From: Theionarchaea archaeon
GTDB taxonomy: Archaea > Methanobacteriota_B > Thermococci > Methanofastidiosales > SZ-28-30
Length of the DNA stretch: 64,000 nt
Assembly (NCBI GenBank): GCA_018992685.1
Contig: JACVGT010000018.1
Coordinates: 248,001-312,000 of the forward strand
Direction: 5' to 3'
The notes beneath the pieces are model-generated. The model was not told the origin of the DNA, did no database searches, and saw only the letters and a list, made by a program, of their open reading frames with translations. The position numbers and the translations under genes are program-made. Of the stretch, positions 7,671 to 11,337 are shown piece by piece (position 1 is the stretch's first letter; every line of letters starts with the position of its first letter).

Positions 7671-8225
7671 CTACTTCCACAGACTGACTCTGTCCTCAGC
7701 CCCTCTTTTCCTCTTAAGCTCTTCCAGAAACTTGTACACTGTGGCATGCATACAACCCTGCATCAACATGTCTACCGCTCTCTTGGCATCTGCCACGTTC
7801 TCAAATTCCCCCAGAATGGACACAGTTCTCCCGTACACACTGACATATGTTCCTGTCATGTTCTCAATGATCTTCCTTGTCATTCCATTCTTTCCAATAA
7901 TTCGGCCTCTCACTCTCCGTAAGGAATTTTCGGATTTTCCAAAATAATCTTCCAGGTCAATTACCTCCAGAGCTGTATTATCGTCCAGAAGGCGCAAAGC
8001 CTTCCGAGGTGAAAACCCTCGGGCAACAGCCTTGATGATGTCTCTCCCCTTCCAGACAGCAAGTGGGTCTTCCGTCTCCTGTTCACCCTGTATGTGGACC
8101 TCCCCTGTCTCTGTATTAATATCCAGTTTGACCTGTAATCGTTCCTCAATTCTGCGTTTCGTTTCTCCATCTTTGCCAATGACGACCCCAATTCTGGCCT
8201 GTGGGACTCTCACATATTCTTCCAT
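7671..8225 (-). CDS. Dim2/Pno1-like double KH-domain RNA-binding protein
   Basis: 184 residues with two KH domains: residues ~3-50 (GVVIGKDGETKRRIEE) and ~100-155 (RIIGKNGMTRKIIENMTG), each with the GxxG loop. This is the archaeal homologue of eukaryal Pno1/Dim2/Krr1, which binds pre-16S/18S rRNA and the 3'-end region during small-subunit maturation. Its start overlaps the end of the RIO1 gene by 16 nt and is preceded by GGAGGTGA seven bases upstream, so it is translationally coupled. Pairing with RIO1 kinase and aIF1A is a conserved archaeal arrangement, consistent with a role in 30S assembly. Confidence 0.93.
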   Translation of the reverse strand: MEEYVRVPQARIGVVIGKDGETKRRIEERLQVKLDINTETGEVHIQGEQETEDPLAVWKGRDIIKAVARGFSPRKALRLLDDNTALEVIDLEDYFGKSENSLRRVRGRIIGKNGMTRKIIENMTGTYVSVYGRTVSILGEFENVADAKRAVDMLMQGCMHATVYKFLEELKRKRGAEDRVSLWK

Positions 8226-8938
8226 TCCTTCACCTCCCTTAGAAGGTCCTCTGTTTCTGGAACATCACAATACCTTGAAAAAAAATGACGCACATTCTCT
8301 AAATCTCTGAGGAGAAACTCCTCAGCCCGGGGATCATCCAGGATGGCGGCCTGGGCAAAATCAATGAAATACAGCGTATCATACACCAGGATATTATACT
8401 CACTCAAGTCAGCATGTACAATTCCCTCTCTGTACATGGTCTTAACGGTATTCATGACAACTTCAAAGTCCTTTTCTGGATCTTCAGGTCCCGTGTCTTT
8501 CAAAAGGGGATACGAAAGTCCATTCTTGCCCAGAAACTCCATGACGACCACATTGTTAAGAACAACAAATGGTTCGGGCAGCTTTATTTTAGGGAATAAA
8601 GATTTCAAGGTGGAAAATTCCCGCTGCGCCCACATGTGGACTACCTTTCGCGGGTTCTTCGTTACGTGACGATACCTTGGATCAGAAATCAAGTACGACC
8701 ACTTGGTCCTGAATTCTGAAGTAGCGACCCTGTAAATCTTGACGGCAATCTCCCTGTTGTCTTCATTTATGCCGTGAAACACATTAGCCTCTTTGCCCGT
8801 GGAGATGGCTCCATGAACTTCATCTATGTACCCCTTGTTGATGAGGGTGTACAGAGTGAGCAGGGTAGAACGATCAAACACTTCCTTGTATATCTTGAAC
8901 GCTTCCTGCCCTTTCTTCAATCTCTTTTCTTCTGCCAC
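8210..8938 (-). CDS. rio1: RIO1-type serine protein kinase
   Basis: 242 residues. The nucleotide-binding loop STGKEANVFHG (~42-52), the ATP lysine in IAVKIYRV (~60), the catalytic loop IVHADLSEYNILV (~170-182) and the metal-binding YFIDFAQAA (~187-195) are all intact. RIO1 associates with pre-small-subunit particles and uses its kinase/ATPase activity in late 30S/40S maturation. The start is GTG 8938. The gene follows aIF1A by 12 nt and overlaps the KH gene, so all three should be on one mRNA. The residues chosen distinguish RIO1 (STGKEA) from RIO2. Confidence is high. Confidence 0.95.
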   Translation of the reverse strand: MAEEKRLKKGQEAFKIYKEVFDRSTLLTLYTLINKGYIDEVHGAISTGKEANVFHGINEDNREIAVKIYRVATSEFRTKWSYLISDPRYRHVTKNPRKVVHMWAQREFSTLKSLFPKIKLPEPFVVLNNVVVMEFLGKNGLSYPLLKDTGPEDPEKDFEVVMNTVKTMYREGIVHADLSEYNILVYDTLYFIDFAQAAILDDPRAEEFLLRDLENVRHFFSRYCDVPETEDLLREVKEWKNM

Positions 8939-8950
8939 ATAACCACCGGG

Positions 8951-9256
8951 CTACAGACGAATTTTCTTTTTCTTTTCAAGCCATTGAGCCTGGGCTCTCG
9001 AATATCGATAAATAATATCCCCTCGTTCATCTTCAGCAAGCTCCCAGGGCTTCACCAGGACTATGTTGTTTACCCGTATCCACAGCCTGTTTCGAAACCG
9101 CCCTGGAATCCTGCATAATCGCACCTTTCCATCTGTGCATTTCACAGTCATTTTTCCGTAGCCCATCATCTGGACTACCTTGCCAATGACTTCATCTCCC
9201 TTGGGGAGTCTGATTCTCCCAATCTGTTCAGATTCCGATTGTTGATTCTTTGCCAG
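8951..9256 (-). CDS. Translation initiation factor aIF1A with CTG start
   Basis: An OB-fold factor that binds the 30S A site and promotes initiator tRNA binding. The classic block is RLPKGDEVIGKVVQMMGYG, then CTDGKVRLCRIPGRFRNRLWI, VLVKPWE and a basic tail. There is no ATG, GTG or TTG in frame between the stop codon at 9269-9271 and ATG 9169. Starting at ATG would delete 29 residues including the first OB strand. GAGG of GAGGTGA lies exactly 7 nt before CTG 9256, giving 101 residues, a normal family length. CTG is therefore chosen. The SD overlaps the end of the TyrRS gene (stop 9261-9263). Family confidence is very high; the start codon is a strong inference. Confidence 0.9.
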   Translation of the reverse strand: MAKNQQSESEQIGRIRLPKGDEVIGKVVQMMGYGKMTVKCTDGKVRLCRIPGRFRNRLWIRVNNIVLVKPWELAEDERGDIIYRYSRAQAQWLEKKKKIRL

Positions 9257-9260
9257 ATTC

Positions 9261-10343
9261 TCACCTCGTTACAGTCTGTTCTCGGAATACCTCCAGGTAT
9301 TCAGGATGATCCTCAAAGTATCTCCTGCACGGAGCAATCAGGGAATTGAGCTCTGCTGATACCTTGTTCTTCAAATCCTGGGGGTGCAAATTACTCTCTG
9401 CGAAATCCTTTTTCAATTCTTCATACCGCCAGTAGGTTACGTCCCCACCGAACTTTGCAGGACGTTCAATGGTGAACTCCCGCTCAATGCCTCTAAAGAG
9501 TATGTGGTCCACAATCTCCATGACAGGATTTCCCTCCACTTCTCCTGCAGGGCAGTACGCCTTCTGTATTTTCTCCTTTAGCTCTTTTTCCGAATCATGG
9601 GCGAAGACGCAGGTTTCCGGGTGTGACTTGGCCATTTTGGACGAAATCTCCAGGTCGATTGTCTCGTCCTCGTCAAATCCACCCATTTTGATGGGTCCTT
9701 GCAGCCCTGCAAGCAAGTGATAGTGGACCGCCACCGGCTTGGGAAGCCCCAGTTTGGGCCCCACATCCCTGGCCAGCATGTGTGCTTTTCTCTGGTCCAT
9801 TCCTGAACAGGCAATATCAAGTCCCATCTGGTAGATATCAGATACCTGCATGGCGGGGTAGATATACTGGGCAGCTTCTTGCAGTTCAGCTTCTTTTCTA
9901 CCCATGATGGTGAGACAGCGAGTAATCCTAGCCACGGTTGACTCTTTCAGCACTTTGATGATTCTTCCCCAGTAGTCAGAATCATCAACGAATTCGCTGC
10001 TCCACACGAACTCGACTGTATCAGGGACTCCAAGAGATAGCCATACCTTCTGGAAATACTCGCCTACCTTCCGAATAGCCTCAAGGTCACCGCCCATCTT
10101 GTTGTTGATCCACGCATGCCATTCAGCCAGGAACAACTTGAATTCTATCCCCGCTTCCATGAGATCCTTAGTTTTCAGCGCAGCCACTATCCCTGTTCCC
10201 AGGTGGGCCTTCCCTGAGGGTTCGAATCCCTGATAAGCTACAGGATGTTCCTTTGTCTCCAAGAGGTTGCGTAGCTCATCTCGGGTCACGATTTCCTCCG
10301 CAGGTTTCCTGCAGATCAGGTCGAGTCTTTCTTCTATGTCCAT
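9261..10343 (-). CDS. tyrS: Archaeal-type tyrosyl-tRNA synthetase
   Basis: 360 residues, class I synthetase that charges tRNA-Tyr. Visible: AYQGFEPSGKAHLGT (HIGH-equivalent HLGT, ~35-50), the tyrosine-pocket region YPAMQVSDIYQMGLDIACSG (~165-184) and the KMSKS-equivalent KMAKS (~225). The start is placed at ATG 10343, matching the usual MDIEERL N-terminus, with GTGATATC before it, 4 nt after the NMD3 stop. The longer reading upstream runs through the NMD3 end and lacks family resemblance. The gene sits between NMD3 and aIF1A in a translation operon. Confidence is high. Confidence 0.95.
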   Translation of the reverse strand: MDIEERLDLICRKPAEEIVTRDELRNLLETKEHPVAYQGFEPSGKAHLGTGIVAALKTKDLMEAGIEFKLFLAEWHAWINNKMGGDLEAIRKVGEYFQKVWLSLGVPDTVEFVWSSEFVDDSDYWGRIIKVLKESTVARITRCLTIMGRKEAELQEAAQYIYPAMQVSDIYQMGLDIACSGMDQRKAHMLARDVGPKLGLPKPVAVHYHLLAGLQGPIKMGGFDEDETIDLEISSKMAKSHPETCVFAHDSEKELKEKIQKAYCPAGEVEGNPVMEIVDHILFRGIEREFTIERPAKFGGDVTYWRYEELKKDFAESNLHPQDLKNKVSAELNSLIAPCRRYFEDHPEYLEVFREQTVTR

Positions 10344-10347
10344 GATA

Positions 10348-11337
10348 TCACATCCAGTAGGCGTATTCCTGAAAGAAAAGGATACTGTACCAGTTTCCAA
10401 CTTTTACTTTTATATCTTTTGGTCTTTTCAAATATCTCGTTTCAAAGTCGGGAAGCATAACCAGAACCTGAGAGGGGGTGACATCAATAACCTGGCAGTC
10501 TTTCACTGTGTACTTGGAAGAGGACAGTGCCTGGAGTTGGTTCTCACTTTCCAGGTACTCCACTTTCTTCCAAGGGAATACCTTTTCTGAATAACCATTC
10601 TTGAGGTGCAGTTTCTGTGAGGAACTTATCACTTTAAAAACCTCATTCTGGCACAGCAGTATGTCACCCGGCTTATACTTGTGCAGTAAGAAGAGAATAG
10701 TCCCTCTCTTTATGTCAGTCCCTTTCTGCCTGTCCATGCCCACAGTCGTGTATGATTCCTTCACAACTCCGCCCAGTTGCTTTCTCAGGATGTGAGCCGC
10801 CCTTAAGGCAGCTTTAGACGTTGAAAAGTAGAAATCTGTTCCTTCTTTTCGTTCTTTGATCTGTGATATAAAGTCCTTCTCTCTCAAATTTGAGACCACG
10901 ATAGAATCGATGAGTGCTCTTTCCTCTTCAGTAAGGAGGTGGTCTTGCCGTCTCACCTGGAGAACAGCCTGGTAGTATCCAGATAGCATCTTTGAGCACT
11001 GGTCACACAATGAGGGTCTCACATGGATTGTAAACTGGGTCTGCTGGACGAAAGCATGAGTCTGGTTCTCGTGGAACCACTGTCTGGCTACCACAGAGAC
11101 GGTGACTACCATGTCACGTTGTTCAATACGGTAGTCGAAATCATCCACAGGAACATGCTCTTCAACCACCTTCTCCAGGGAAATATCCCTCCACGAACCA
11201 TAGTGTAGAGCACCGCATTCCTTGCACTTTGAGAGTTTCAAATTTCTGATGAATAGAGGAGGCTGTCCTTCCAGAAAACATGGTTCGCACAGTCCCTCGA
11301 TGCGGGCCTTCCTCTTACCACACTGAAAGCACATCAT
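10348..11337 (-). CDS. NMD3 homologue, 60S/50S ribosome export/assembly family
   Basis: 329 residues. The N-terminus carries the NMD3 zinc-binding Cys pairs: CFQCGKR (3-6), LCEPCF (17-20), CKECGALHYGSW (~37-48) and a further LCDQCSKM (~110). In eukaryotes NMD3 binds the large subunit and adapts it to Crm1; the archaeal protein is inferred to act in late 50S maturation. The start ATG overlaps the DUF424 stop (ATGA). Cotranscription with aIF2beta, DUF424 and TyrRS supports the translation role. Confidence in the family is high; the archaeal role is inferred from homologues. Confidence 0.93.
   Translation of the reverse strand: MMCFQCGKRKARIEGLCEPCFLEGQPPLFIRNLKLSKCKECGALHYGSWRDISLEKVVEEHVPVDDFDYRIEQRDMVVTVSVVARQWFHENQTHAFVQQTQFTIHVRPSLCDQCSKMLSGYYQAVLQVRRQDHLLTEEERALIDSIVVSNLREKDFISQIKERKEGTDFYFSTSKAALRAAHILRKQLGGVVKESYTTVGMDRQKGTDIKRGTILFLLHKYKPGDILLCQNEVFKVISSSQKLHLKNGYSEKVFPWKKVEYLESENQLQALSSSKYTVKDCQVIDVTPSQVLVMLPDFETRYLKRPKDIKVKVGNWYSILFFQEYAYWM

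What the first reader, a model, noticed from the sequence alone, without database searches (positions are those of the whole stretch)
8951..9263. aIF1A starting at CTG: possible initiation-factor autoregulation
A translation initiation factor with a non-ATG start echoes bacterial infC, whose AUU start lets IF3 repress itself, and eukaryal eIF1 with its poor start context. aIF1A influences start-codon selection with aIF1, so low aIF1A could raise CTG use and restore the factor. The next ATG would cut off the first OB strand, and the SD at 7 nt is intact.
Basis: partly seen in the sequence, partly recalled or inferred. Interest (0 to 1): 0.62.

Follow-up and report, generated by a model that had tools for sequence, protein, structure and literature searches.

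The report
Archaeal initiation-factor gene with CTG start

Summary
Confirmed, on the minus strand. The only aIF1A gene of this Theionarchaea-like genome starts at CTG (9256-9254), 7 nt after a strong Shine-Dalgarno, with no ATG/GTG/TTG before codon 30, inside the OB fold. It is not a read error: the congener has the same SD and CTG. In the order, 18 of 18 main-type copies lack ATG or GTG: CTG in 11 (f1 2/2, f3 9/9), TTG in 4 (f2), ATA in 3 (f4), each after an SD. Three divergent f4 copies start with ATG. A sister family uses ATG in 86 of 86 readable loci. aIF1 in the same order is ATG in 20 of 20. So the start stays weak while its codon changes, as in bacterial infC. But weak starts are not private to aIF1A here: APRT uses ACG in 5 of 8, and a nucleotidyltransferase uses ATA/ATC/ATT/ACG in 8 of 9 f3 genomes. 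CTG invariance within f3 alone is only mildly unusual (17 of 121 fourfold sites are also invariant). Autoregulation is plausible but untested; the sign of aIF1A's effect is unsettled, and the main fidelity factor, aIF1, has a normal start. Constant throttling and clade-wide tolerance remain live rivals.

The parts
8951..9256 (-). aIF1A coding sequence, CTG start, 101 codons plus TAG stop
   Evidence: Open frame; PF01176 80.1 bits; NF003084 128.4 bits; 5jb3 alignment
9254..9256 (-). CTG start codon
   Evidence: Only SD-linked start candidate upstream of the conserved domain; conserved in the congener and CTG in 9 of 9 f3 genomes
9261..9267 (-). Shine-Dalgarno GAGGTGA, overlapping the TyrRS stop TGA (9263-9261)
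   Evidence: Sequence; identical in L003
9164..9169 (-). First in-frame ATG codons (ATG ATG), codons 30-31, inside the OB fold
9261..10400 (-). Upstream tyrosyl-tRNA synthetase; its stop lies 4 nt before the CTG
   Evidence: NF006330 425.5 bits; same order TyrRS-aIF1A-RIO1-KH in f1 and f3
8210..8938 (-). Downstream RIO1-type kinase, GTG start
   Evidence: GTG in f1
7671..8225 (-). Downstream archaeal KH-domain protein, ATG start
   Evidence: TIGR03665 226.3 bits; ATG at all 19 loci where it was aligned

Best explanation
aIF1A is translated from a near-cognate CTG, presumably read by the ordinary initiator Met-tRNA, after a strong Shine-Dalgarno. Shown: the CTG is the only SD-linked start, the gene is the sole aIF1A copy found, and its start has been kept below ATG/GTG strength in all four families of the order while the codon itself changed. 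Inferred: this weakness is selected because it ties aIF1A synthesis to the stringency of start-codon selection. When aIF1A (acting with aIF1) is plentiful, pairing at CUG is rejected more often and less aIF1A is made; when it is scarce, CUG is accepted and the level recovers. This works like infC/IF3, but on a different, non-homologous factor.
For: 18 of 18 main-type copies lack ATG/GTG: CTG 11, TTG 4, ATA 3, each SD-linked. The N-terminal tail after the CTG varies between f3 species while CTG stays. Controls in the same order: aIF1 ATG 20/20; aIF5B ATG or GTG at 19 of 21 loci, 2 not readable; KH ATG at 19 of 19 aligned loci. Sister family f5: ATG in 86 of 88 fetched loci, 2 not recognised by the script. 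Among 474 gene instances with a cross-family homologue, 28 had no canonical start at or before the aligned start and, by my reading, about 8 of these had an SD-linked near-cognate; 3 of those are aIF1A, the only gene flagged in two families. P. abyssi toeprints: with aIF1 present, aIF1A makes the complex more dynamic (PMC6237735), the sign needed for negative feedback.
Against: Near-cognate starts are used by unrelated genes here (APRT ACG 5 of 8, nucleotidyltransferase 8 of 9 non-ATG), so a weak start alone does not mean feedback. aIF1, the known discriminator, has ATG. f2 uses TTG, which is an accepted start in these genomes. Invariance of CTG within f3 is matched by about 14% of free sites (17 of 121 fourfold sites invariant). 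Without aIF1, aIF1A stabilises P-site tRNA, and yeast eIF1A's N-terminal tail favours near-cognates, which would give positive feedback. No expression data exist.
Confidence: 0.38

Rival explanations
1. Constant throttle: the weak start simply sets a low, fixed translation rate for aIF1A relative to its operon neighbours (TyrRS, RIO1, KH). The SD keeps it from being too low; there is no feedback.
For: The CTG lies 4 nt after the TyrRS stop in a TyrRS-aIF1A-RIO1-KH order shared by f1 and f3. Other genes pair near-cognate starts with GGTGAT-type SDs and have ATG where the SD is poorer, e.g. APRT: ACG after GGTGAT in five, ATG after AGTGAT or no clear SD in three.
Against: A constant rate could be set by many SD and context changes, yet no main-type copy in four families settled on ATG or GTG, including f2 and f4, where TyrRS was not found upstream.
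Confidence: 0.32
2. Clade-wide tolerance: these archaea accept near-cognate codons after a good SD, so start codons drift among ATG, TTG, CTG, ATA, ATC, ATT and ACG without selection for weakness.
For: The nucleotidyltransferase start is ATA, ATC, ATT, ACG or ATG in nine f3 genomes; 13 SD-linked near-cognate candidates, some doubtful, in about 1.54 Mb.
Against: ATG still dominates SD-linked starts (172 ATG, 27 TTG, 17 GTG sites; CTG and ATA near or slightly above background). aIF1, aIF5B and KH did not drift to near-cognates. CTG to TTG or ATG is one base change, yet main-type aIF1A never shows ATG.
Confidence: 0.25
3. Wrong start: the true start is elsewhere (an upstream or internal codon), or the sequence is in error.
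For: MAG data; no protein evidence.
Against: CTG and SD conserved in a second genome and CTG in f3; no ATG/GTG/TTG upstream; N-terminal length matches P. abyssi aIF1A.
Confidence: 0.05

Closest known systems
Bacterial infC (IF3), ATT or ATC start with negative autoregulation (PMC5472188, passages seen)
   Same: Initiation-factor gene with a weak start kept across relatives while the codon varies
   Different: aIF1A is the homologue of IF1/eIF1A, not of IF3; feedback untested; archaeal 30S; SD-led, directly behind TyrRS
Eukaryotic eIF1 (SUI1): AUG in poor context, negative autoregulation (PMC6237735 and PMC5756025, passages seen)
   Same: Start-selection factor with a poor start of its own
   Different: There the factor is eIF1 and the codon is AUG; here aIF1 has ATG (20 of 20) and aIF1A has the weak start
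Streptomyces sigR GTC start, repressed by IF3 (PMC5472188, passages seen)
   Same: Non-factor genes with near-cognate starts can be read out by initiation stringency; compare APRT and the nucleotidyltransferase here
   Different: Shown by experiment there; only sequence here

Membership tests
aIF1A (eIF-1A family) | OB-fold eIF-1a domain over the curated cut-off | tested here: met
   PF01176 80.1 bits, cut-off 30.2; NF003084 128.4, cut-off 91; TIGR00523 102.2 against 102.9, just below
aIF1A (eIF-1A family) | Sole copy in the genome, at the RIO1-KH locus | tested here: met
   One match; neighbours
Initiation-factor genes autoregulated through a weak start (infC type) | Start codon other than ATG/GTG/TTG, conserved as weak | tested here: met
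   CTG or ATA in 14 of 18, TTG in 4 of 18 main-type copies; the TTG family meets it only in part
Initiation-factor genes autoregulated through a weak start (infC type) | The factor itself lowers initiation at that codon | not testable with these tools
   Literature on P. abyssi is mixed
Initiation-factor genes autoregulated through a weak start (infC type) | Changing the start to ATG abolishes the feedback | not testable with these tools
   Needs reporters
infC (IF3) family | IF3 homology | tested here: not met
   The protein is eIF-1A family; works-like only
eIF1/SUI1 type autoregulation | Poor start on the eIF1 homologue | tested here: not met
   aIF1 starts with ATG in 20 of 20 matches in the order

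The most novel reading that the evidence does not exclude
This archaeal order has a start-codon-stringency circuit: a set of SD-led genes with near-cognate starts (aIF1A, the eIF2B-epsilon-like nucleotidyltransferase, APRT, catalase, ThiF and others) is tuned together by how strictly the 30S complex rejects imperfect codons, and aIF1A, itself started at CTG/ATA/TTG, is the feedback node that sets that strictness. It would be an infC-like loop reinvented in archaea on the IF1-type factor.
Probability: 0.2. Interest if true: 0.82.

Novelty: new variant of a known kind. Interest (0 to 1): 0.6.

Why it matters
Weak start codons on initiation-factor genes are known from bacteria (IF3) and, as poor context, from eukaryotes (eIF1). 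A conserved weak start on an archaeal initiation factor would fill the third domain and put the loop on aIF1A, whose own role in codon stringency is unsettled. It gives a natural, codon-swappable substrate to measure that role. It also warns that start-codon callers limited to ATG/GTG/TTG will truncate or miss essential genes in this order.

Tried and rejected
Read error: rejected by the congener and f3. Internal ATG 9169: it would remove the N-terminal tail and the first OB strand. RNA structure masking the start: the fold of 9316-9207 has z -0.26, nothing unusual. Altered initiator tRNA: a tRNA-Met with anticodon CAT lies at one pattern locus each of G000, G007 and G012 (3 of the 6 loci scanned, of 7 found), nothing unusual; G003 and G016 had no pattern match. 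Anti-SD: TGGATCACCTCCT was not found in any of 7 MAGs, perhaps because rRNA is missing; the one loose hit, L116, does not look like a 16S end, so the anti-SD is not confirmed here. Claim that CTG is enriched genome-wide: rejected; SD-linked CTG is near background (9 against 5.1 expected in G000; 1 against 0.3, 0 against 0.2 and 1 against 0.5 in G007, G012 and G020). The first homology screen was confounded by close f3 pairs and was replaced by the cross-family one. Literature: searches listed no report of a non-AUG aIF1A start or of aIF1A autoregulation; only the listings and the passages named were seen.

Full report
Observation. On the minus strand, the frame 9268-8951 encodes aIF1A without any ATG, GTG or TTG before ATG 9169. 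The only SD-linked start candidate is CTG 9256-9254: the SD GAGGTGA overlaps the TyrRS stop, and its GAGG ends 7 nt upstream. The protein is aIF1A and the only PF01176 match in this 3.03-Mb, 91%-complete genome. It aligns with P. abyssi aIF1A (5jb3) from our residue 3 to its residue 4, without gaps, so a start at the CTG gives a normal N terminus.

Where it is. The nearest named relative is the MAG 'Theionarchaea archaeon SZ_28-30'. Handles f1-f5 below are families as numbered by the tool; names are not given. I take f5 to be Thermococci from its P. abyssi-like aIF1A (inference).

Conservation. PF01176 was searched in all 21 genomes that the tool holds for the order: 19 have a match, 21 matches in all. 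Two genomes (G011, G018) had none. Eighteen matches are main-type copies. Their starts, each behind an SD, are: f1 CTG 2 of 2 (G000, G001; L003 is the same contig as G001's and is not counted again); f3 CTG 9 of 9 (mostly AGGAGG-GATTAT-CTG); f2 TTG 4 of 4 (G003 has two adjacent TTGs, so which is used is open); f4 ATA 3 of 3 (GGAGG(G/T)-AATT(C/T)C-ATA). The other three matches (L020, L021, L022, f4) are divergent copies at the RIO1-KH locus that start with ATG; they form a separate, long-branched clade, and no RIO1 was found beside the f4 ATA copies. In f5, 93 genomes have a match and 88 of these loci were fetched; the script read 86, and in all 86 the start with the best SD is ATG; L193 and L234 were not recognised.

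Controls. Same order: aIF1 (SUI1) ATG in 20 of 20 matches, one genome without a match. aIF5B: 16 loci ATG, 3 GTG, 2 not readable, of 21. KH: ATG at all 19 loci with an alignment (L002 and L003 are the same contig). RIO1: GTG in f1, ATG in f3, TTG or CTG-like in f2 (ambiguous), mixed in f4. An SD-anchored census over 1.54 Mb of four genomes found 172 ATG, 27 TTG and 17 GTG sites with an SD of 6 or more bases, CTG and ATA near or slightly above background. In 474 gene instances with a homologue in another family, 28 lack any canonical start at or before the aligned start; roughly 8 of those have an SD of 5 or more bases before a near-cognate, by my reading, and three of them are aIF1A. This screen did not flag the f4 aIF1A, probably because an unrelated in-frame ATG lies upstream of it in G020.

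Results against a factor-specific reading. Near-cognate starts occur in other genes. Thirteen SD-linked candidates were listed, the window's aIF1A among them; others are catalase, a ThiF protein, a DUF460 protein and a YdjM protein (Pfam). Some of the thirteen are doubtful because an ATG follows closely. APRT in f3 is ACG in 5 of 8 matched genomes and ATG in 3 (matched in 8 of 21 genomes searched). A nucleotidyltransferase in f3 is ATA in 2, ATC in 4, ATT in 1, ACG in 1 and ATG in 1 of 9. So this order tolerates near-cognates, and in at least one other gene the weakness is mostly kept while the codon drifts. Within f3, CTG invariance alone is weak evidence: 17 of 121 fourfold sites in aIF1A, KH and RIO1 are also invariant in the nine genomes.

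Mechanism. Shown by sequence: CTG start, strong SD, conserved weakness across four families. Inferred: the start makes aIF1A output depend on initiation stringency. Reported for P. abyssi: aIF1 impairs stable tRNA accommodation; [quoted passage not shown] without aIF1 it stabilises the tRNA (PMC6237735, passages). The first would give negative feedback, the second positive. Yeast eIF1A's N-terminal tail favours near-cognate initiation while its C-terminal tail opposes it (PMC5756025, passages), and aIF1A lacks the C-terminal extension (PMC7531240, passages). The direction therefore has to be measured. My odds: feedback 0.38, constant throttle 0.32, tolerance without function 0.25, wrong start 0.05.

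Comparison. The closest working model is infC, whose ATT (ATC in Streptomyces) start lets IF3 repress itself (PMC5472188, passages). The gene is not a member of the IF3 family, and it is not the eIF1 case, because aIF1 here starts with ATG. In the searches listed under Tried and rejected I saw no report of a non-AUG aIF1A start; subscription journals are mostly absent from that library.

Verdict. A real, conserved, unusual start on a core initiation factor, with an attractive but unproven regulatory meaning.

Noticed in passing
L240-L248 (f3 genomes): A nucleotidyltransferase with an eIF2B-epsilon-like LbH domain starts at ATA, ATC, ATT or ACG in 8 of 9 f3 genomes, ATG in one, mostly after GGTGAT-type SDs: weak start kept while the codon drifts.
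   Followed up: partly
L151-L158 (f3 genomes): APRT-like gene starts at ACG after GGTGAT in 5 and at ATG with a poorer SD in 3 of 8 genomes, as if SD and start strength trade off.
   Followed up: partly
L017-L022 (f4): f4 genomes can carry two aIF1A-like genes: an ATA-start copy away from RIO1 and a divergent ATG-start copy at the RIO1-KH locus.
   Followed up: partly
window 61956-61954 (-): Radical SAM gene with GGAGGTGA four nt before an in-frame ATC; the first ATG is 7 codons further on: possible ATC start.
   Followed up: partly
window 10400 (-): TyrRS is listed from TTG 10400, but f3 homologues align only from about residue 19-20, where this gene has an ATG, so the true start is probably that ATG.
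   Followed up: no
L072:14166-15434 (-), own genome: DUF460 protein with AGGTGAT before ATA and no ATG/GTG/TTG for 14 codons: possible ATA start in the window's own genome.
   Followed up: partly
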